DNA from: an uncultured Acidimicrobiales bacterium | GTDB taxonomy: Bacteria > Actinomycetota > Acidimicrobiia > Acidimicrobiales > Bin134 | DNA: 64,000 bases | Assembly (NCBI GenBank): GCA_951813555.1 | Contig: OX638344.1 | Location: 3,473,076 to 3,537,075 of the forward strand | Reading direction: 5' to 3' | In this document: positions 1,867 through 57,113 of the stretch, piece by piece | How positions within the stretch are numbered: the stretch's first letter is position 1 | Layout of the letters: each line of letters opens with the position of its first letter | Translations under genes and position numbers: made by a program | Notes under the pieces: generated by a model | Databases searched by the model: none | Told to the model about the DNA's origin: nothing | Seen by the model: only the letters and a program-made list of their open reading frames with translations

Positions 1867-3297
1867 ATGGAAACAACCCGACGCATAGGAGTCACAATTG
1901 CGGTCTTCCTGCTGCTGATCCTGCTGTCCGCCAGCGGCCGTGATGCCGTCGAGTCCGCCACTGCCGCCGGAGTCGCGCGCCAAGTTGGGGAGACCACGGC
2001 GGCCCCTCGGATCGTGACCGTCCCCCCCACTGCGGCGGCCCCTCGGATCGTGACCGTCCCTCCCACAGCGGCGGCCCCTCGGATCGTGACCGTCCCCCCT
2101 ACAGCGGCTCCCACTACGGCAACCGTCCCCCCTACAGCGGCTCCCACTACGGCAACCGTCCCCCCTACAGCGGCTCCCACTACGGCAACCGTCCCCCCTA
2201 CAGCGGCTCCCACTACGGCAACCGTCCCCCCTACAGCGGCTCCCACTACGGCGACCGTCGCCCCTACGGCGGAGGCCGCCCCCTCCCCGACCACCACGAC
2301 CACAACAACAACGACTCTGCCGCCACTCGATCCTGTGACATTCGAATCGCTTGACCGGGTTAACTTGATCCGCGACTTCAGCAAATACGTGTCCTCCGGC
2401 CGGTCTCGGTGGGAGCGGTCGGTCCCAGGAATCGAGCAGCTTCGGATTATTTCGACCGCCGACGGCGTCGAACAACCCGTCTTCTGGCTGGCTCCGAGTG
2501 GCGACCGCGATCAGCCCGTGTTGGTGATTTTGCACTCTTGGAGCGCCCCGTACACCCAGCACGCCGGGATTCCCTTTGCAATGTGGGCCCAGGAAAATGG
2601 TTGGGCAGTCATCGTCCCCGAGTTCCGAGGAAAGAACGACGACGCCGACGCGGTCGGATCCGACTTGGCGGTCCAGGACGCGGCAGATGCGATCGACTAT
2701 GCCGTCGCCCAGGCAGGGGTGGATACCAATCGGGTGTACGTCGTCGGCTACTCCGGCGGCGGGATGATGGGGCTCCTCCTTGCTGGGCGACACCCTGACA
2801 AGGTCAGCGCGGTCTCGGTCTGGGGGCCACCGCATGACCTTGTGGAGTTCTACGAGCACGCGAGGAGGGCGGGTCTGGGCTATGCCAACGACATCTGGCG
2901 GGCCTGCGGAGGTGACCCGAGGGACGCCGGCTCGGCGCAGGATGAGTGTCTGACCCGTAGTCCGGCGACGTACCTGGAGTCGGCCCGCGACCAGGCGGTC
3001 CCGATCTTCATCGCTCAGGGCATCCGCGATCAGTTCGTGCCCCCGAGTGTGGGGGCCGAGGTGTTCAATCAGCTAGCCGACCCCGACGACCGCCTCAGCG
3101 CTGAGGAGGTGGACCTTTTCGGTCGGGGGAGGGTTCCCGACCATCTGTCGATCACGACCGAGACCTACTTCGGGGACGGAGACCCCGCCCCCGTATTCGC
3201 CCGACAGTCGGGTCGAGCCTTGCTCGTCTACTTCCAGTCAAGCCACGAAATGGTCTACAACGCGAGTGCACGGTGGTTCGCAAGCGATCCCCGCTAG
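1867..3297 (+). CDS. Secreted alpha/beta hydrolase with Thr/Ala/Pro repeat stalk
   Basis: A 476-residue exported protein. Residues 1-25 are a signal peptide or anchor (VTIAVFLLLILLSA). About residues 45-135 are tandem repeats of the types TAAAPRIVTVPP and TAAPTTATVPP, followed by a poly-Thr linker. This resembles a wall-spanning or O-glycosylated stalk. The C-terminal 320 residues form an alpha/beta hydrolase of the prolyl-oligopeptidase/esterase type with nucleophile elbow GYSGGGMMG. Asp in GIRDQFVPP and His in SSHEMVYN are candidate triad members. The substrate is unknown. It is divergent from the acyltransferase gene, with 115 bp between the starts. Confidence 0.8.
   Translation: METTRRIGVTIAVFLLLILLSASGRDAVESATAAGVARQVGETTAAPRIVTVPPTAAAPRIVTVPPTAAAPRIVTVPPTAAPTTATVPPTAAPTTATVPPTAAPTTATVPPTAAPTTATVPPTAAPTTATVAPTAEAAPSPTTTTTTTTTLPPLDPVTFESLDRVNLIRDFSKYVSSGRSRWERSVPGIEQLRIISTADGVEQPVFWLAPSGDRDQPVLVILHSWSAPYTQHAGIPFAMWAQENGWAVIVPEFRGKNDDADAVGSDLAVQDAADAIDYAVAQAGVDTNRVYVVGYSGGGMMGLLLAGRHPDKVSAVSVWGPPHDLVEFYEHARRAGLGYANDIWRACGGDPRDAGSAQDECLTRSPATYLESARDQAVPIFIAQGIRDQFVPPSVGAEVFNQLADPDDRLSAEEVDLFGRGRVPDHLSITTETYFGDGDPAPVFARQSGRALLVYFQSSHEMVYNASARWFASDPR
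2001..2108 (+). repeat. 36-bp tandem repeat, 3 copies, coding
   Basis: Three near-identical 36-bp units begin at 2001, 2037 and 2073. Each encodes a 12-residue APRIVTVPPTAA-type unit of the hydrolase stalk. Copies differ by one or two bases. Confidence 0.9.
2101..2265 (+). repeat. 33-bp tandem repeat, 5 copies, coding
   Basis: Units begin at 2101, 2134, 2167, 2200 and 2233. Each encodes the 11-residue unit TAAPTTATVPP. The first four are virtually identical and the last is degenerate. Near-identity suggests recent slippage, so stalk length may vary between strains. Confidence 0.9.
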
Positions 3298-48296: not shown

Positions 48297-49214
48297 ATGG
48301 GCCAGCGCAGCATGATGAGAATGACAAGGGGCGCGAAGTTCGTGCTGGCTGTCGTGGCGGCTTGCCTATTGGCGATGGGCCTGGGCACGACAACCGCTGC
48401 ACAGGCCGTGGCGCAGCCGGTGAGCAACGCGGCGGACTGCGCCGCGTTGCTTCAGTTTGCTCAGGAGCCGGTCCCGGTAGTCAAATCAGCCGACGGCCAA
48501 AACGTCCCGGCCACCGTCCGATGGGGCTACAACGCCGACCACAACATCTGCTACCTCGTCCTCGACGACTCAGCCATCGCCGTGCTCCGAACCGCCGCCA
48601 CTCCCCCACCACCGGATTCTGAGGACCAGGGCGACAGCAACACAGAAGAAACCGACGACGACAAGGGCAGCAACGGGAACGACGGCGGTGAAACCCCACT
48701 ACCGACCCCACAGCCCAGCCCCGTCTCCGCCGGCGATAGTCACACGTGCTGGCTGAAGGCTGACGCCACCGTCTTTTGCTGGGGCAGCAACTGGAACGGG
48801 CAGCTCAACGCCCCCGACGGCCAGTTCACCGAGGTCTCCGCCGGGTGGGCCCACACCTGCGCCCTACAAACCGACCAGACCATCGCCTGCTGGGGCAGCA
48901 ACCAGGACCTTGAGGGAATCCACACCGCAGCGCTGGACGCACCGGAGGGCCGCTTCGCAGCCGTCTCCGCCTCCATTGAAAGCTGGTTCACCTGTGGCCT
49001 GCACGAAGACGGCATCATCCAATGCTGGGGCAGCGACGAGAATCCCTACGGGAGCAGTTCCGGGGTGTTCAATATCCCCGGCGGCAGATTCACTTCGGTC
49101 TCCACTCTGGGCAACCACGTATGCGGCCTGCGAGAGAGCGGCCAAGCCGAATGCTGGGGTTGGTCGTCCTTGCGGCCCAGCGAAGATGTCGGCCCTGCGA
49201 CCGGGCAGGGCTAG
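48297..49214 (+). CDS. Secreted RCC1-repeat protein (short paralogue)
   Basis: A 305-residue exported protein with signal peptide (VLAVVAACLLAMGLGTTTAAQA). An N-terminal module contains CAALLQFAQEPVPVVKSADG...WGY...CYLVLD. An acidic Ser/Thr/Asp/Pro linker follows, then four RCC1-like repeats (AGWAHTCALQTDQTIACWG type), each with two Cys. It ends abruptly after AECWGWS with a short unrelated tail, so it may be truncated relative to its neighbour. A 27-bp direct repeat follows its stop. It is probably extracellular or cell-surface. Confidence 0.75.
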   Translation: MGQRSMMRMTRGAKFVLAVVAACLLAMGLGTTTAAQAVAQPVSNAADCAALLQFAQEPVPVVKSADGQNVPATVRWGYNADHNICYLVLDDSAIAVLRTAATPPPPDSEDQGDSNTEETDDDKGSNGNDGGETPLPTPQPSPVSAGDSHTCWLKADATVFCWGSNWNGQLNAPDGQFTEVSAGWAHTCALQTDQTIACWGSNQDLEGIHTAALDAPEGRFAAVSASIESWFTCGLHEDGIIQCWGSDENPYGSSSGVFNIPGGRFTSVSTLGNHVCGLRESGQAECWGWSSLRPSEDVGPATGQG

Positions 49215-49253
49215 TCTGCAACCTACTTTCTGACCGGCTGACGGGTCGGTAGC

Positions 49254-49339
49254 GTTGTGAAGATGATGGCGGGGCCCCACAGGGGTCCAGGCAGGATTCG
49301 GGGACTGATCCAGTTGTGAAGATGATGGCGGGGGCCCCA
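49254..49339 (+). repeat. Direct repeat pair between the RCC1 genes
   Basis: gttgtgaagatgatggcggg begins at 49254 and again at 49313 (about 26 bp each, followed by GGGCCCC variants), spaced 59 bp. It lies in the 163-bp gap between the two RCC1 genes. It could be a recombination scar or a duplicated promoter element. Confidence 0.75.
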
Positions 49340-49377
49340 AGCTGGGCCGACAATTGACTGGGCGTGCGCTGGGCGTG

Positions 49378-52300
49378 ATGCAGAAGCTGCTGGCCGCAGT
49401 CCTCGCGGTGCTGATGGCGTCCTCTGGAGTGGCCGCTTTGTCAGCCAGCCCGGCGGCCGCCAACCCAACGGCCGATAGATGCTCAGCGATCCACCAGTTC
49501 GGGGCGACCCCAGTCCCGGTGGCCAAAACCGCCGACGGAACCACCGTGCTGGCCCATGTCGAGTGGGGTTACGACTCGTCTATCGGCTGCTATCTGACCC
49601 TCGATCAAGACTCAGTCAAAACGCTTAGAGCCGAAGCCATTGCCTTCACACTCCCGACTGGAACCGCCGATCCCATATCCCAGCGGTGCTCGGCAGTCCA
49701 CCATTTCGGGGCGACCCCGGTCCCGGTGGCCAAGACTGCCGACGGAACCGGCATATTGGCCTATATCAGATGGCTGCCCAACGACACCGGGGCCTGCTAT
49801 CTCGTTCTCGACAACCAGGCAACAACCGTGCTGCGAGCCAGCATTGCCGATTCGCTGCCCGAGCCCGAGCTTCAAGTCCAGCAGAACCCCTTGTCTGTCG
49901 GCACCTGGCACTCGTGCTCCATCCGGGAAAACGGCAACGTCGACTGCTGGGGCAACAACTGGGCCGGTCAACTCAACGCCCCCAGCAGCCGAATCACCGC
50001 CGTCGCCGCCGGCAGCGCCCACACCTGCGGCCTACAAGCCGACGGCACCATCACCTGCTGGGGCAACAACACAAGCTGGACGAATGCCCCCAGCGGCCAG
50101 GCCGACGCCCCCCGGGGCCGTTTCACTGCCGTCACCGCCGGCGCCTGGCACTCCTGCGCCATCCGGGAAAACGGCACCGCCCAATGCTGGGGCAACAACG
50201 ACGACAACCAAACCGACACCCCCGCTGGCCGATTTACCGCCATCACCGCCGGCAGCGCCCACACCTGCGGCCTGCAAGCCGACGGCACCATCACCTGCTG
50301 GGGTTCTGACTTCTACGGGCAAGCCACCGCGCCCGCTGGCCGATTTACCGCCATCACCGCCGGTTGGGCCCACACCTGCGGCCTGCGAATCGACGGCACC
50401 GCCAGATGCTGGGGCCTCAATTGGGCCAGACAACTCACCTCCCCCGACGGCCGATTTACCGCAATCACCGCGGGCTGGGCCCACACCTGCGGCCTGCGAA
50501 CCGACGGCACCATCACATGCTGGGGCTACAACAACGACGGGCAGACTTACGCACCCAGCGGCCAATTCACCGCCATCGGCGCCGGCGGCTACCACAGCTG
50601 CGGACTCCGCCTAAACGGCACCATCCAATGCTGGGGCAACAATTTCTACCGCCAGCTGGACGCGCCGGTGAATCCTGAGAGCCAGTACAGCCCAATCGCC
50701 GTTGGCACCGAACACTCGTGCCGCATCCAAAACATCGGCAGCATCACATGTTGGGGCAGCAACAACTTTGGGCAGGCGAGCGCTCCCAGCGGCCAGTTCA
50801 CTGCCATCGCCGCCGGCAGTTGGCATACCTGCGGACTCCGCCAAAACGGCGCCGCCCAATGCTGGGGCAACAACGACGACAACCAAACCGACACCCCCGA
50901 CGGCCGATTCACCGCCATCGCCGCCGGCAGCGCCCACACCTGCGGACTCCGAGACGACAACACCGCCCAATGCTGGGGTTCTGACTACTACGGACAAGCC
51001 ACCGCGCCCGACGACCGATTCACCGCCATCGCCGCCGGCAGTTGGCATACCTGCGGACTCCGCCAAAACGGCGCCGCCCAATGCTGGGGCAACAACGACG
51101 ACAACCAAACCGACACCCCCGACGGCCGATTCACCGCCATCGCCGCCGGCAGCGCCCACACCTGCGGACTCCGAGACGACAACACCGCCCAATGCTGGGG
51201 TTCTGACTACTACGGACAAGCCACCGCGCCCGACGACCGATTCACCGCCATCGCCGCCGGCAGTTGGCATACCTGCGGACTCCGCCAAAACGGCGCCGCC
51301 CAATGCTGGGGCAACAACGACGACAACCAAACCGACACCCCCGACGGCCGATTCACCGCCATCGCCGCCGGCAGCGCCCACACCTGCGGACTCCGAGACG
51401 ACAACACCGCCCAATGCTGGGGCGAGATCACGCCCCAGACCGAAGCCGAGCCCAAGACCCAGCTCATCCCTGTTTCGGCCGGACAAACCCATTCATGCCA
51501 TCTGCGGGCCGACCAGACCGTCTTGTGCTGGGGATCTGATTTCTACGGACAGCTCCAAGTTCCTGACGGCCCGATCCTGGCCATATCTGCCGGCGGCTAC
51601 CACTCCTGCGCACTCCGAGGCGATGGCACGGCCGTGTGCTGGGGCAACGACAGCGACGGGCAGTCGACCGCACCCGAGGGCCAGTTCACCGCGGTGGCCG
51701 CCGGCACCTGGCATTCTTGCGGACTCCGCAGCAACGGCACTATCGAATGCTGGGGCAGAGACGACGATGGGCAAGCGGACCCGCCCGGCGGGAAGTTCAC
51801 CGGGGTATCGGCGGGCTGGGCCCATTCTTGCGGCATCCGAGAAAACCGCGCCGTCGAATGCTGGGGCAACGGCTGGGCTGGCCAGCTCGACACACCCGAC
51901 GGCCAGTTCACCGCGGTATCGGCGGGCTGGGCCCATTCTTGCGGCATCCGAGAAAACCGCGCCGTCGAATGCTGGGGCGATCGGCGTGGCGACCGGCTGA
52001 GCGCGCCGAGAGGACCCTTCTTGGCCGTTTCCGCGGGTGAGTTGCATTCCTGTGGCATCCGAGAAAACGGCGCAGTGGAATGCTGGGGCAACAACAACGA
52101 CAACCAAGCCGACGCCCCCGAGGGCCAATTCACGGCTGTATCTGCCGGAACCTGGCATTCATGCGGGTTGAGAACCAATCTGAATGTGGAATGCTGGGGA
52201 AGGTATGAGAGGCCGATCAAGGGGAATATAGATGTGCATGTACACTATTGCGCCTCACAAAATGCGAACTACACAGAAGCAGATTTGCTCTACGAAATAG

Positions 52301-52890
52301 ACAGACTCAATAGAGTTGTGGCCACATTTTATGCTGAACAGTCATCCGACATGTTAAAGCTTAACTTTGTATTGGGCGATATTGTTTCCCCAAATATTGA
52401 TTGGGAACATCTATTCATAGGAGACTGGTATAAGGAAGATAGGAACCTATGCTGGCCTGAAATTCAAAATTCTAACCACAAACATAATCTGATTTTGGCA
52501 AATATATCTCCGGGCAATGGAGCATACGGCCTCGCACCGATACTCGGCGACTGGGCGATCTCAGCTACAGTCGAAAAATATTTTTCCTCCTTGTCTGACT
52601 GCACATTTGAGGAATCCACCGACCGTGTACGTGAACAGACAAGGGATAACAGTTGTCGTACTACGGCATATGTCCAATATTTCTCTATCATCGCGCATGA
52701 ACTAGGTCACTCCCTATTTGGTTTTGGACATCCTCGAGACTGCTCAATTATGGACAATATACGTAAGCCTTCATGCGAAAACGAACAAACTATCGAAACA
52801 AGCGGAATAGGGTGCATGGACCGTCGGCAGTTGGGCTGGCCGGAAGCTGACCAATGCCCGAGCGCACTGGTCAGCGCTTCCGAAGGCTGA
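49378..52890 (+). CDS. Secreted RCC1-repeat protein with C-terminal zinc metallopeptidase domain
   Basis: A 1170-residue exported protein. It has a signal peptide (LLAAVLAVLMASSGVAAL) and two tandem N-terminal modules with the pattern C-x4-QFGATPVPVAKTADG...CYL-LD. About 21 RCC1-like repeats of about 37 residues follow (AAGSWHTCGLRQNGAAQCWG type), likely folding into three propellers, with paired Cys. The last about 210 residues are a different domain with HELGHSLFGFGH and SIMDN, as in metzincins but with one extra residue between the second and third His. That last part is AT-rich and codon-shifted. ATG 49378 is used. The protein may bind a surface target and cleave it; that function is inference. 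Confidence 0.8.
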   Translation: MQKLLAAVLAVLMASSGVAALSASPAAANPTADRCSAIHQFGATPVPVAKTADGTTVLAHVEWGYDSSIGCYLTLDQDSVKTLRAEAIAFTLPTGTADPISQRCSAVHHFGATPVPVAKTADGTGILAYIRWLPNDTGACYLVLDNQATTVLRASIADSLPEPELQVQQNPLSVGTWHSCSIRENGNVDCWGNNWAGQLNAPSSRITAVAAGSAHTCGLQADGTITCWGNNTSWTNAPSGQADAPRGRFTAVTAGAWHSCAIRENGTAQCWGNNDDNQTDTPAGRFTAITAGSAHTCGLQADGTITCWGSDFYGQATAPAGRFTAITAGWAHTCGLRIDGTARCWGLNWARQLTSPDGRFTAITAGWAHTCGLRTDGTITCWGYNNDGQTYAPSGQFTAIGAGGYHSCGLRLNGTIQCWGNNFYRQLDAPVNPESQYSPIAVGTEHSCRIQNIGSITCWGSNNFGQASAPSGQFTAIAAGSWHTCGLRQNGAAQCWGNNDDNQTDTPDGRFTAIAAGSAHTCGLRDDNTAQCWGSDYYGQATAPDDRFTAIAAGSWHTCGLRQNGAAQCWGNNDDNQTDTPDGRFTAIAAGSAHTCGLRDDNTAQCWGSDYYGQATAPDDRFTAIAAGSWHTCGLRQNGAAQCWGNNDDNQTDTPDGRFTAIAAGSAHTCGLRDDNTAQCWGEITPQTEAEPKTQLIPVSAGQTHSCHLRADQTVLCWGSDFYGQLQVPDGPILAISAGGYHSCALRGDGTAVCWGNDSDGQSTAPEGQFTAVAAGTWHSCGLRSNGTIECWGRDDDGQADPPGGKFTGVSAGWAHSCGIRENRAVECWGNGWAGQLDTPDGQFTAVSAGWAHSCGIRENRAVECWGDRRGDRLSAPRGPFLAVSAGELHSCGIRENGAVECWGNNNDNQADAPEGQFTAVSAGTWHSCGLRTNLNVECWGRYERPIKGNIDVHVHYCASQNANYTEADLLYEIDRLNRVVATFYAEQSSDMLKLNFVLGDIVSPNIDWEHLFIGDWYKEDRNLCWPEIQNSNHKHNLILANISPGNGAYGLAPILGDWAISATVEKYFSSLSDCTFEESTDRVREQTRDNSCRTTAYVQYFSIIAHELGHSLFGFGHPRDCSIMDNIRKPSCENEQTIETSGIGCMDRRQLGWPEADQCPSALVSASEG
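50803..51421 (+). repeat. 222-bp tandem amplification inside RCC1 gene
   Basis: Identical blocks recur with period 222 bp (copies start at about 50803, 51025 and 51247; the third is cut short). Each encodes two 37-residue repeats. No synonymous differences were seen between copies. Confidence 0.93.
51805..52000 (+). repeat. 111-bp single-unit duplication in RCC1 gene
   Basis: The block starting gtatcggcgggctgggccca at 51805 is repeated at 51916 with near identity, equal to one 37-residue unit. Confidence 0.85.
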
Positions 52891-54494: not shown

Positions 54495-57113
54495 TTAACG
54501 CGGTGTGCGATCCCGGTCGCGGCCGCGTCCCCCTCCACCTCGACGGTGAGAACCACCGCCCGGTCCGAGATCGCCGAACTCATCGCGCAGCTGGGCTTCG
54601 AAATCAGCCTCAAAGGAAGCCGCCTGCGCAGGCACTCCCCAGTCGCCACGGTCTCGACTGCCCCGATCCTCAGAACGGCGGTTGTCCCGGTCCCGCCGAT
54701 CATCCCGGCGATCCCGACTGCCCCGATCCTCAGAACGGCGGTTGTCCCGATCCCGGCGATCATCCCGGCGATCTCGACTGCCCCGATCCTCAGAACGGCG
54801 GTTGTCCCGGTCCCGCCGATCATCCCGGCGATCCCGACTGCCCCGATCCTCAGAACGGCGGTTGTCCCGATCCCGACGCTCGTCACGGTCCCGACTGCCC
54901 CGATCCTCAGAACGGCGCTCCGAGCCGCTGTCGCGACCGCTGTCGTCACCGGTCAGCTTGAGGCTGATCTTGCCGTTGGGGTCGATGTCCTCCACGACAA
55001 CATCGAGGTCATCGCCCAACGATACGACGTCTTCGACCCGATCGATCCGACGGCCTCGTCCGAGCTTGGAGATGTGCACCAAACCGTCGCGGCCCGGAAG
55101 GATGTTCACAAAGGCCCCAAACGAAGTGATGTTCACCACTTTCCCGCTATACACCTCGCCCACCTCGGCGGTGGGCGGATCCAAGATCAAGCGGATTTGA
55201 CGCTCGGCCTCATCTACGCAGTCTCGGTCGGGCGAGGAGATGGTGACGATGCCTGAGTCCTGGGCGTCGTCCACGTTGACCTCGGCACCGGTTTCAGCCT
55301 GAATGGAGTTGATGACCTTGCCCTTGGGCCCAATGACCTCGCCGATCTTGTCCAGCGGGATCTCGAACTTGATGATCTTGGGAGCGGTGGGCCGGACGTC
55401 GTCCCGGGGGGCGTCAATGGCCCCCGCCATCACCTCCAAGATCTTGAGCCGGGCATCGCGGGCCTGATTCAACGCATCAGCCAAGACATCGGCGGGTAGA
55501 CCGTCGATCTTGGTGTCGAGCTGGAGGGCGGTCACAAAGTCGGCCGTGCCCGCCACTTTGAAATCCATGTCGCCGAACGCGTCCTCGGCGCCCAAGATGT
55601 CGGTGAGCGTGGTGTAGCGACCCTCGTGAAACACCAACCCCATGGCGATGCCGGCCACCGGCGCCTTGATGGGCACGCCCGCGTCCATCAGCGACAGGGT
55701 TGAAGAGCACACAGAGCCCATCGACGTTGATCCGTTTGAGGAGAGCACCTCCGAGACCAAGCGCAACGTGTAAGGGAACTCGTCCATGGAGGGGATCACC
55801 GGAACCAAGGCCTTCTCGGCCAGAGCCCCGTGCCCGATCTCGCGGCGCTTCGGACCCCGCATGAAGCCGGTCTCGCCCGTGGAGTACGGCGGGAAGTTGT
55901 AGTGGTGGATGTAGCGCTTCTTGTCGATGGGGTCGATCCCGTCGATCATCTGGTCCATCCGAGCCGTGCCCAGCGTGGTGATGTTCAGCACCTGGGTCTC
56001 TCCCCGCTCGAACAGCCCGGAGCCATGAGCGGTGTCCACCACCCCAACCTCAGATCCGAGTGGCCGGAGATCTGCCGCGCCCCGCCCGTCTATGCGCGCG
56101 CCGTCTTGCACAATTCGGGTGCGAACAATGCCCTTGGTGAGCGAGCGGACGGCAGCCGAGATCTGCTTGTCAACCCCCTCGACCTCGGCGTAACGCTCGG
56201 CCAGCGCCTCGGCGATCTCCTCTTTTGCCCTCGTCTCGGCCTCCTGGCGCTCAGCCTTGTCGGCGATGGACATGGCCGCAGCCAGCTTGTCGGCACCCAG
56301 CTCGGCCACCGCGGCCTCGACCTCAGGGGTGTAGTCCACTTGGAGCTCGTACTCCATGGGGGGCTGGACCCCGGCGGTGGCGATCAGCCTGCGCTGGAGG
56401 CCCACCGCTTCTTTGATCCACTCCTTGGACCGCTCCAGTCCCTCAGCGAGGGCGGCTTCGTCCACTTTCGGGGTTCCGTTGCTGTAGAGTTCCCAGCCTG
56501 CCTCGGTGCCGTTGGCCTCTACCATCATGATGGCCACATCGCCGTCATCCAGAACGCGACCGGCCACCACCATTTCGAAGGTGGATTCGGCGCCCTCGGC
56601 ATAGGTGGGGTGGGGAATCCACTCCCCGTCGGCACTGTGCGCCACTCGCACCGCGCCGATCGGACCGGCGAACGGTATGCCCGAGATGCTGAGTGCTGCC
56701 GATGCCCCGTTGATGGCGATCACGTCATAGGGGTTCTCCTGGTCGGCACCCAAGACGGTTCCGACGACATGTATCTCGTTGCGGAACCCGTCGGGAAACG
56801 AGGGCCGCAGCGGCCGGTCGATCAGTCGACAGGTCAAGATGGCCGACTCGGGGGCCCGACCTTCCCGCCGGAAGAACGAGCCGGGGATCTTGCCCGCGGC
56901 ATACATCCGCTCTTCGATGTCGACAGTGAGGGGGAAGAAGTCTGCCCCCTCACGCACACGACGGGCCGCTGTTGCGGTCACCAAGATGGTGGTATCGCCC
57001 ATGCGGGCCACAACGGCACCGTCGGCCTGTCCGGCCAGACGACCTGTCTCAAAGGACAGGGTTTTGGTTTCCGCGCCGCTTACGGCGGCTGAAACGGTGA
57101 TGGCTTCCGCCAT
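54495..57113 (-). CDS. pnp: Polyribonucleotide nucleotidyltransferase (PNPase)
   Basis: An 872-residue 3'-5' phosphorolytic RNase. It has two RNase PH-like domains (FFPLTVDIEERMYAAGKIPGSFFRREGR in the first and TSMGSVCSSTLSLMDAGVPI in the second), a KH domain (EVIGPKGKVINSIQAETGA), an S1 domain (GEVYSGKVVNITSFGAFV) and an unusually long C-terminal tail of Arg/Asp/Ser 20-residue repeats. GAGGAGC precedes ATG 57113. It lies downstream of rpsO as in most bacteria. Confidence 0.95.
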   Translation of the reverse strand: MAEAITVSAAVSGAETKTLSFETGRLAGQADGAVVARMGDTTILVTATAARRVREGADFFPLTVDIEERMYAAGKIPGSFFRREGRAPESAILTCRLIDRPLRPSFPDGFRNEIHVVGTVLGADQENPYDVIAINGASAALSISGIPFAGPIGAVRVAHSADGEWIPHPTYAEGAESTFEMVVAGRVLDDGDVAIMMVEANGTEAGWELYSNGTPKVDEAALAEGLERSKEWIKEAVGLQRRLIATAGVQPPMEYELQVDYTPEVEAAVAELGADKLAAAMSIADKAERQEAETRAKEEIAEALAERYAEVEGVDKQISAAVRSLTKGIVRTRIVQDGARIDGRGAADLRPLGSEVGVVDTAHGSGLFERGETQVLNITTLGTARMDQMIDGIDPIDKKRYIHHYNFPPYSTGETGFMRGPKRREIGHGALAEKALVPVIPSMDEFPYTLRLVSEVLSSNGSTSMGSVCSSTLSLMDAGVPIKAPVAGIAMGLVFHEGRYTTLTDILGAEDAFGDMDFKVAGTADFVTALQLDTKIDGLPADVLADALNQARDARLKILEVMAGAIDAPRDDVRPTAPKIIKFEIPLDKIGEVIGPKGKVINSIQAETGAEVNVDDAQDSGIVTISSPDRDCVDEAERQIRLILDPPTAEVGEVYSGKVVNITSFGAFVNILPGRDGLVHISKLGRGRRIDRVEDVVSLGDDLDVVVEDIDPNGKISLKLTGDDSGRDSGSERRSEDRGSRDRDERRDRDNRRSEDRGSRDRRDDRRDRDNRRSEDRGSRDRRDDRRDRDNRRSEDRGSRDRRDDRRDRDNRRSEDRGSRDRGDWGVPAQAASFEADFEAQLRDEFGDLGPGGGSHRRGGGGRGRDRDRTPR
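54655..54915 (-). repeat. 60-bp tandem repeat in pnp 3' end
   Basis: Four 60-bp units plus a shorter fifth. Each encodes a 20-residue unit of the type NRRSEDRGSRDR. Copies differ at a few positions. They encode a charged disordered tail. Confidence 0.92.

What the first reader, a model, noticed from the sequence alone, without database searches (positions are those of the whole stretch)
48297..52890. Paired secreted RCC1-repeat proteins inserted in the dap/rnj core
Two adjacent exported proteins share an N-terminal module and 4 or about 21 Cys-paired RCC1-like repeats. They interrupt an otherwise minus-strand housekeeping run between SURF1/dapB and the winged-helix/dapA group. The large one carries a metallopeptidase domain, which suggests a modular toxin-like or adhesin-protease system; the short one could be a regulator, decoy or truncated copy.
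Basis: partly seen in the sequence, partly recalled or inferred. Interest (0 to 1): 0.72.

Follow-up and report, generated by a model that had tools for sequence, protein, structure and literature searches.

The report
Secreted protease on recognition propellers
A sponge-symbiont bacterium carries, between ordinary housekeeping genes, a gene for an exported protein with three seven-bladed "RCC1/BLIP-II" binding propellers and an unclassified zinc-protease domain at its end; the small gene next to it is a lineage-specific partial relative with an incomplete propeller, not a conserved partner.

Summary
48297-49214 (305 aa) and 49354/49378-52890 (1170 aa from ATG) are two exported proteins with 4 and exactly 21 (3 x 7) Cys-paired 37-aa RCC1-type repeats. 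The long one ends in a HELGHSLFGFGH zinc-protease-like domain. The host genus is Candidatus Poriferisocius (sponge Acidimicrobiia). The long gene is orthologous at the same site in two congeners and absent from 13, where the flanking genes adjoin. The short gene is absent from both orthologous loci, has one N-module instead of the usual pair, and 4 blades instead of 7n. The "pair" is therefore not a conserved system. Repeats come in sevens because each seven closes a propeller (pLDDT 91.6). The nearest solved relative is BLIP-II, a secreted actinobacterial protein that binds enzymes picomolar-tight; the Cys-stapled form matches plant CRINKLY4. The most variable, aromatic-rich positions of the repeat are those with which BLIP-II grips its target. 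The protease domain is under strong purifying selection, matches no family above cut-off, and is confined to this genus among genomes searched. Best reading: a surface-displayed or secreted protease aimed by propeller arrays, one of many modular exported proteins built on paired N-modules. Target unknown.

The parts
48297..49214 (+). Short gene, 305 aa: signal peptide, one N-module (NA), acidic low-complexity linker, 4 RCC1/BLIP-II blades, then a short unrelated tail
   Evidence: absent at the orthologous loci of G201 and G213; model shows an open 4-blade arc
49254..49337 (+). Two 25-bp copies, 59 bp apart, upstream of the long gene; also two-copy in G201 and single in G213, so an older leader duplication and not a target-site duplication of the short gene
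49378..52890 (+). Long gene, 1170 aa from ATG (TTG at 49354 also open): signal peptide, NA-NA, 3 x 7 blades, zinc-protease-like domain
49457..49845 (+). Tandem N-modules NA-NA (about 50 aa each, two Cys each); NA found only in this genus among 118 genomes of the order
49882..50672 (+). Propeller 1 (7 blades)
50692..51435 (+). Propeller 2 (7 blades); contains a two-blade 222-bp unit repeated with 222/222 identity (50818-51039 = 51040-51261) and a third partial copy
51457..52207 (+). Propeller 3 (7 blades of 3 strands each in the model), nearest the protease
52222..52887 (+). Zinc-protease-like domain, HELGHSLFGFGH (about 52696-52731) and CSIM Met-turn; GC 0.44 against 0.66 around it

Best explanation
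The long gene makes an exported, probably wall-associated zinc endopeptidase whose targets are chosen by three disulfide-stapled, seven-bladed RCC1/BLIP-II-type propellers. Export by signal peptide follows from sequence. The paired N-modules probably hold the protein at the cell surface; this is inferred from the company they keep. Each set of seven 37-aa repeats closes one propeller. The propeller face is a recognition surface: its variable, aromatic-rich positions are the ones with which BLIP-II grips beta-lactamase. The C-terminal adamalysin-like domain cuts what the propellers hold, for instance sponge matrix or surface proteins, or proteins of neighbouring microbes. The target is not known. 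The short gene is a young, lineage-specific, probably truncated paralog with an incomplete propeller; at most an accessory or decoy. Shown: architecture, orthology and site, purifying selection on the protease, predicted folds, variable positions. Inferred: disulfides, proteolysis, surface anchoring, target choice, symbiosis role.
For: Export signals and Cys-paired repeats. Repeat number is a multiple of 7 in 10 of 12 RCC1 proteins of this closed chromosome, with 7 and 14 dominating in congeners. Model of propeller 3 plus protease: mean pLDDT 91.6, seven three-stranded blades. Closest solved structures: BLIP-II, Foldseek E 3.2e-22 and 32% identity, VIA Z 31.1, rmsd 1.5, 227 aligned, phmmer E 7.7e-33; UVR8 and CR4 also match. 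BLIP-II binds class A beta-lactamases with picomolar affinity (PMC6121496). The five most variable positions of 107 own-genome units (7, 8, 24, 26, 27) are BLIP-II contact positions: 18 of 21 listed contacts fall on W-14, W-13, W+2, W+4 or W+5 of the conserved Trp-Gly (PMC10817188). In 253 units from other genomes four of them are the four most variable and position 24 ranks seventh; aromatic residues make up 20% there against 0.4-1.2% elsewhere. Protease: zinc ligands invariant in ten relatives, dN/dS 0.07-0.09, model residues 252-461 match snake-venom P-I metalloproteinases, Z 13, 167 aligned, rmsd 3.3. N-module pairs also head an amidase, a transglycosylase-like protein, a fn3 array and an LRR protein. 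Host genus from named records.
Against: No activity, localisation or target is shown. The zinc motif has six residues between the second and third His instead of the metzincin five, and the Gly is not invariant, so catalysis is inferred. Loops generally vary, so coincidence with BLIP-II contacts could partly reflect loop position; positions 15 and 34 also vary, and in the 15 units of the long gene alone the ranking is unclear. Between orthologs these positions do not change faster than the rest (p = 0.22), so there is no sign of an arms race. The link of the N-modules to the wall is by association only.
Confidence: 0.58

Rival explanations
1. The propellers are enzyme inhibitors in the manner of BLIP-II: they capture and block foreign enzymes, and the protease domain is a secondary clearing device or only structural.
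For: BLIP-II is the nearest solved relative and an inhibitor from Actinobacteria; most RCC1 proteins in this genome have no protease.
Against: Zinc ligands are invariant and the domain is under strong purifying selection; inhibition rests on specific contacts that cannot be read from the fold.
Confidence: 0.17
2. Eukaryote-like mimicry: the propellers imitate host proteins so that sponge cells tolerate the symbiont, with Ran GTPase or phagocytosis as target, as for Legionella RCC1 effectors.
For: Sponge host genus; sponge symbiont metagenomes are enriched in eukaryotic-like proteins (PMC9531527); Legionella RCC1 effectors act on the Ran cycle (PMC7157520).
Against: The repeats are the short, Cys-paired BLIP-II/CRINKLY4 kind suited to the outside of the cell, not the long RCC1 kind; RCC1 proteins are frequent across the order (59 of 148 genomes, 48 of 114 genera), so they are not a mark of this symbiosis.
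Confidence: 0.13
3. Short and long gene form a functional pair in which the short protein regulates or inhibits the protease, like the Listeria Mtz-Tim pair.
For: Adjacent, same strand, shared N-module; the short gene keeps coding-like third-position GC of 0.80; protease-partner pairs exist (PMC8235301).
Against: Orthologous loci in G201 and G213 lack the short gene; its best full-length relatives are 40-43% identical pieces of larger proteins; the model is an open arc of 4 blades.
Confidence: 0.07
4. About the short gene alone: it is debris or a drifting fragment without function.
For: One N-module instead of two, 4 of 7 blades, unrelated C-terminal tail, no ortholog.
Against: Intact 305-codon frame with signal peptide and normal codon-position GC; one other gene with a single N-module exists (143-aa frame L210:5579-6007).
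Confidence: 0.5

Closest known systems
BLIP-II (beta-lactamase inhibitory protein II, Streptomyces; PDB 1jtd, 3qhy)
   Same: Secreted actinobacterial seven-bladed RCC1-like propeller with three strands per blade and repeats of similar length (38-39 residues between Trp-Gly motifs); the contact positions of BLIP-II are the variable positions here
   Different: BLIP-II is one propeller without the Cys pairs, N-modules or protease; target of the present protein unknown
CRINKLY4/ACR4 ectodomain of plants (PDB 7a0j, 7a0k)
   Same: Seven repeats of about 39 aa with a C(X about 10)CWG motif and predicted disulfide in every blade (PMC4617170)
   Different: Plant receptor kinase with one propeller, TNFR-like domain and kinase; no protease
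Adamalysin/reprolysin (M12B) and matrixin (M10) metallopeptidases
   Same: Fold match Z 13 to snake-venom P-I enzymes, sub-threshold Pfam matches, HExxH helix, Met-turn
   Different: Third His one residue later, Gly not invariant, all Pfam scores below cut-off, no PDB sequence relative
Legionella RCC1 effectors LegG1/PieG/PpgA
   Same: Bacterial RCC1-repeat proteins of a host-associated organism; one of them is known as a split gene
   Different: 2-3 RCC1 repeats, type IV injected, no protease, no Cys-paired blades
Eukaryotic-like repeat proteins of sponge symbionts (ankyrin, WD40, LRR, fn3)
   Same: Multi-gene exported repeat families in sponge-associated bacteria
   Different: RCC1/BLIP-II propellers joined to a protease and to paired genus-specific N-modules

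Membership tests
RCC1/BLIP-II seven-bladed propellers | RCC1 repeats recognised by sequence | tested here: met
   PF13540, 4 and 21 repeats, E 4.8e-21 and 1.4e-157; BLIP-II phmmer E 7.7e-33
RCC1/BLIP-II seven-bladed propellers | Seven blades closing one toroid, three strands per blade in BLIP-II | tested here: met
   Long protein: 7 x 3 strands in the model of propeller 3, pLDDT 91.6; inferred for propellers 1 and 2. The short protein has 4 blades and does not meet it
RCC1 Ran exchange factors | Residues needed for Ran GEF activity | not tested
   Exported protein of the BLIP-II kind; catalytic residues of RCC1 were not mapped
BLIP-II (beta-lactamase inhibitor) | Inhibits class A beta-lactamases | not testable with these tools
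   Needs an enzyme assay
Metzincins | Zinc motif HEXXHXXGXXH/D | tested here: not met
   All ten aligned relatives have six residues between His 2 and His 3 and no invariant Gly. In the model the active-site helix ends at F421, just before G422
Metzincins | Met-turn after the zinc motif | tested here: met
   CSIM/CSVM/CSFM/CSLM/SIM in the relatives; by sequence only
Adamalysin/reprolysin M12B | Profile score above the curated cut-off | tested here: not met
   Best Pfam score for the window domain 19.3 against a cut-off of 27
Adamalysin/reprolysin M12B | Fold | tested here: inconclusive
   Z 13.1, 167 aligned, rmsd 3.3, 14% identity; zinc geometry not inspected, no coordinates at hand
Polymorphic toxin system | Immunity gene next to the toxin gene | tested here: not met
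   Orthologous loci have no other gene between the long gene and its neighbours
CRINKLY4-type repeats | C(X about 10)CWG in each of seven repeats | tested here: met
   C-x9-CWG in the repeats; CR4 ectodomain among the top fold matches. Receptor-kinase context is absent, so not filed as CR4

The most novel reading that the evidence does not exclude
Ca. Poriferisocius carries a genus-specific, wall-displayed recognition repertoire: a common paired N-module chassis, Cys-stapled BLIP-II-type propellers whose aromatic contact positions encode target choice, and interchangeable payloads, one of them a new metallopeptidase family with a HExGHxxF/YxxxH motif.
Probability: 0.33. Interest if true: 0.72.

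Novelty: new variant of a known kind. Interest (0 to 1): 0.55.

Why it matters
Bacterial RCC1-repeat proteins are numerous but rarely assigned a function. Here the repeats fall in sevens, match a secreted high-affinity binder, and vary at its contact positions, which turns 'RCC1-like repeat' into a testable statement about target recognition. The fused protease family has no curated name and is confined to one sponge-symbiont genus among the genomes searched, a plausible handle on how such bacteria act on their host or neighbours.

Tried and rejected
Short gene as the broken 5' end of the long gene: rejected (different frame, own signal peptide, low identity, G201 and G213 lack it). Short gene as a mobile insert with target-site duplication: the 59-bp duplication is also in G201. 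Viral origin of the protease domain: no relative in IMG/VR. Solved-structure relatives of the protease by sequence: none credible. Anti-phage defence: no PADLOC match. NCBIfam: no match. RNA families between 46000 and 55000: none. Promoters and terminators: no more than chance. Fast evolution of contact positions between orthologs: not found. The RNase J identity values printed came from a wrong reading frame and are not used. The codon-position GC values of the sub-segment short_R are out of frame and not used. Fold of the N-module: no statement, its match list was filled by the propeller.

Full report
WHAT IS THERE. The window lies at 3473076-3537075 of a 3.81-Mb single-contig genome. Between SURF1/dapB and a 215-aa gene, dapA and rnj, all on the minus strand, two plus-strand genes encode exported proteins. 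The short one (48297-49214) is 305 aa. The long one is 1170 aa from ATG 49378. Pfam finds 4 and 21 RCC1_2 repeats. The 21 repeats are three blocks of seven with short linkers. The last domain (52222-52887) has HELGHSLFGFGH followed by CSIM, and a GC content of 0.44 against 0.66 around it.

WHO CARRIES IT. A scan of 84,980 species genomes with the protease alignment returned 17 loci. The two nearest are 85% and 78% identical. Several records are named Acidimicrobiia or Candidatus Poriferisocius anaerobius; that the bin names belong to sponge microbiome projects is from general knowledge. NCBI places the genus in Acidimicrobiales. In a sample of 198 genomes of the order the domain occurs only in this genus; within the genus in 16 of 22. 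One locus (L164, unnamed 'bacterium') could not be placed.

THE SITE. Thirteen congeners have the 215-aa gene and SURF1 directly adjoining. G201 and G213 carry the long gene there, with the same NA-NA, first and third propeller, and protease; the middle is lost in contig ends or gaps. Neither has the short gene. For the remaining congeners the contig does not cover the site or the order differs. Protease dN/dS between orthologs is 0.07-0.09, propeller 3 0.12-0.19, N-modules plus propeller 1 0.31. Synonymous divergence of the protease domain from G201, 1.04, is well above that of SURF1 (0.38) and propeller 3 (0.40); together with the low GC this points to an unusual history of this segment, not resolved here.

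THE FAMILY. Twelve RCC1 proteins in this genome hold 21, 4, 14, 14, 21, 14, 18, 7, 7, 7, 14 and 7 repeats (the last with one extra 1-bit unit). Ten of twelve are multiples of seven; congeners peak at 7 and 14. Propeller 2 of the long protein was recently rebuilt from a two-blade unit, 222 of 222 bases identical, yet still counts seven. The exceptions (4, 18, and other counts in some congeners) show that the rule is strong, not absolute. N-terminal modules come in two kinds (NA, NB), nearly always in tandem pairs. The same pairs head other exported proteins: a fn3 array, an LRR protein, an N-acetylmuramoyl-L-alanine amidase and a transglycosylase-like protein. The payload joined to the propellers varies: this protease, CAP domain, SGNH/DUF459, LRR; other carriers of the protease have Calx-beta or fn3. 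The NA module was found in no other genus in a sample of 118 genomes. RCC1 repeats as such are common in the order (59 of 148 genomes).

STRUCTURE. Best matches are BLIP-II, plant CR4, UVR8 and RCC1. BLIP-II is described as a seven-bladed propeller with three strands per blade that inhibits TEM-1 at picomolar Ki (PMC6121496). CR4 repeats have C(X about 10)CWG and predicted disulfides (PMC4617170); the window repeats have C-x9-CWG. Model residues 252-461 match snake-venom P-I metalloproteinases at Z 13. The short protein gives an open arc of four blades, pLDDT 78.7.

THE BINDING FACE. Listed BLIP-II contacts (PMC10817188) were placed on the repeat by their distance from the conserved Trp-Gly. 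18 of 21 lie at W-14, W-13, W+2, W+4 or W+5, which are unit positions 7, 8, 24, 26 and 27. These are the five most variable positions among 107 units of this genome; in 253 units from other genomes four of them lead and the fifth ranks seventh. In the 15 units of the long gene alone the ranking is less clear. Aromatic residues occupy them 20% of the time, elsewhere 0.4-1.2%. Between orthologous blades they are mostly conserved (p = 0.22), so each propeller seems to keep its own fixed face. This supports stable, distinct targets and not an arms race.

HOW IT PROBABLY WORKS. Export, then retention at or release from the cell surface, recognition by propellers, cleavage by the zinc domain. What is shown is limited to sequence, conservation and predicted fold. 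Activity, anchoring and target are inferred. The metzincin consensus is not met (six residues between His 2 and His 3), so the domain is described as metzincin-like, not filed as a member.

THE SHORT GENE. It has one N-module where relatives have two, an acidic linker, four blades and a short unrelated tail. No ortholog was found in 21 congeners; the best full-length matches are 40-43% identical parts of larger proteins. It is not a frameshift remnant of the long gene. Its reading frame and codon-position composition are normal, so function cannot be excluded, but a conserved regulator or decoy role is unlikely.

VERDICT. Observation confirmed. Interpretation partly supported: modular exported protease with binding propellers, yes; paired toxin-like system, no evidence. 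New variant of a known kind.

Noticed in passing
window 52222-52860: Protease domain has third-position GC 0.43 against 0.61 and 0.58 in its two orthologs, and dS 1.04 against 0.38 for neighbouring SURF1: unusual history of this segment.
   Followed up: partly
window 50818-51483: Two-blade 222-bp unit in propeller 2 duplicated with 222/222 identity plus a third partial copy: recent blade amplification that keeps the total at seven.
   Followed up: partly
L212:854-2197, L214:1577-2959, L206, L208, L210: Unnamed N-modules (NA, NB), mostly paired, head an amidase, a transglycosylase-like protein, a fn3 array and an LRR protein: candidate cell-wall attachment modules without a Pfam entry.
   Followed up: partly
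L115:619-4605: In G205 a RCC1-protease gene is split by one in-frame TAG at 3295-3297; a near-identical contig in G212 also shows an in-frame TAG.
   Followed up: no
L067:10467-15398: G213 locus is mixed: SURF1 84% identical to the window but the 215-aa gene only 66%, as in distant congeners; suggests recombination at this site.
   Followed up: no
L025:1733-10087: 2785-aa frame with long LRR arrays, Ig-like and fn3 domains and one seven-blade block at its end.
   Followed up: no
L178:2830-6162: G119 RCC1 protein with 13 repeats and a weak match to another reprolysin-type family at residues 815-891.
   Followed up: no
window 54500-54950: C-terminal end of polynucleotide phosphorylase carries a tandem Arg/Asp-rich repeat (NRRSEDRGSRDRRDDRRDRD).
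   Followed up: no
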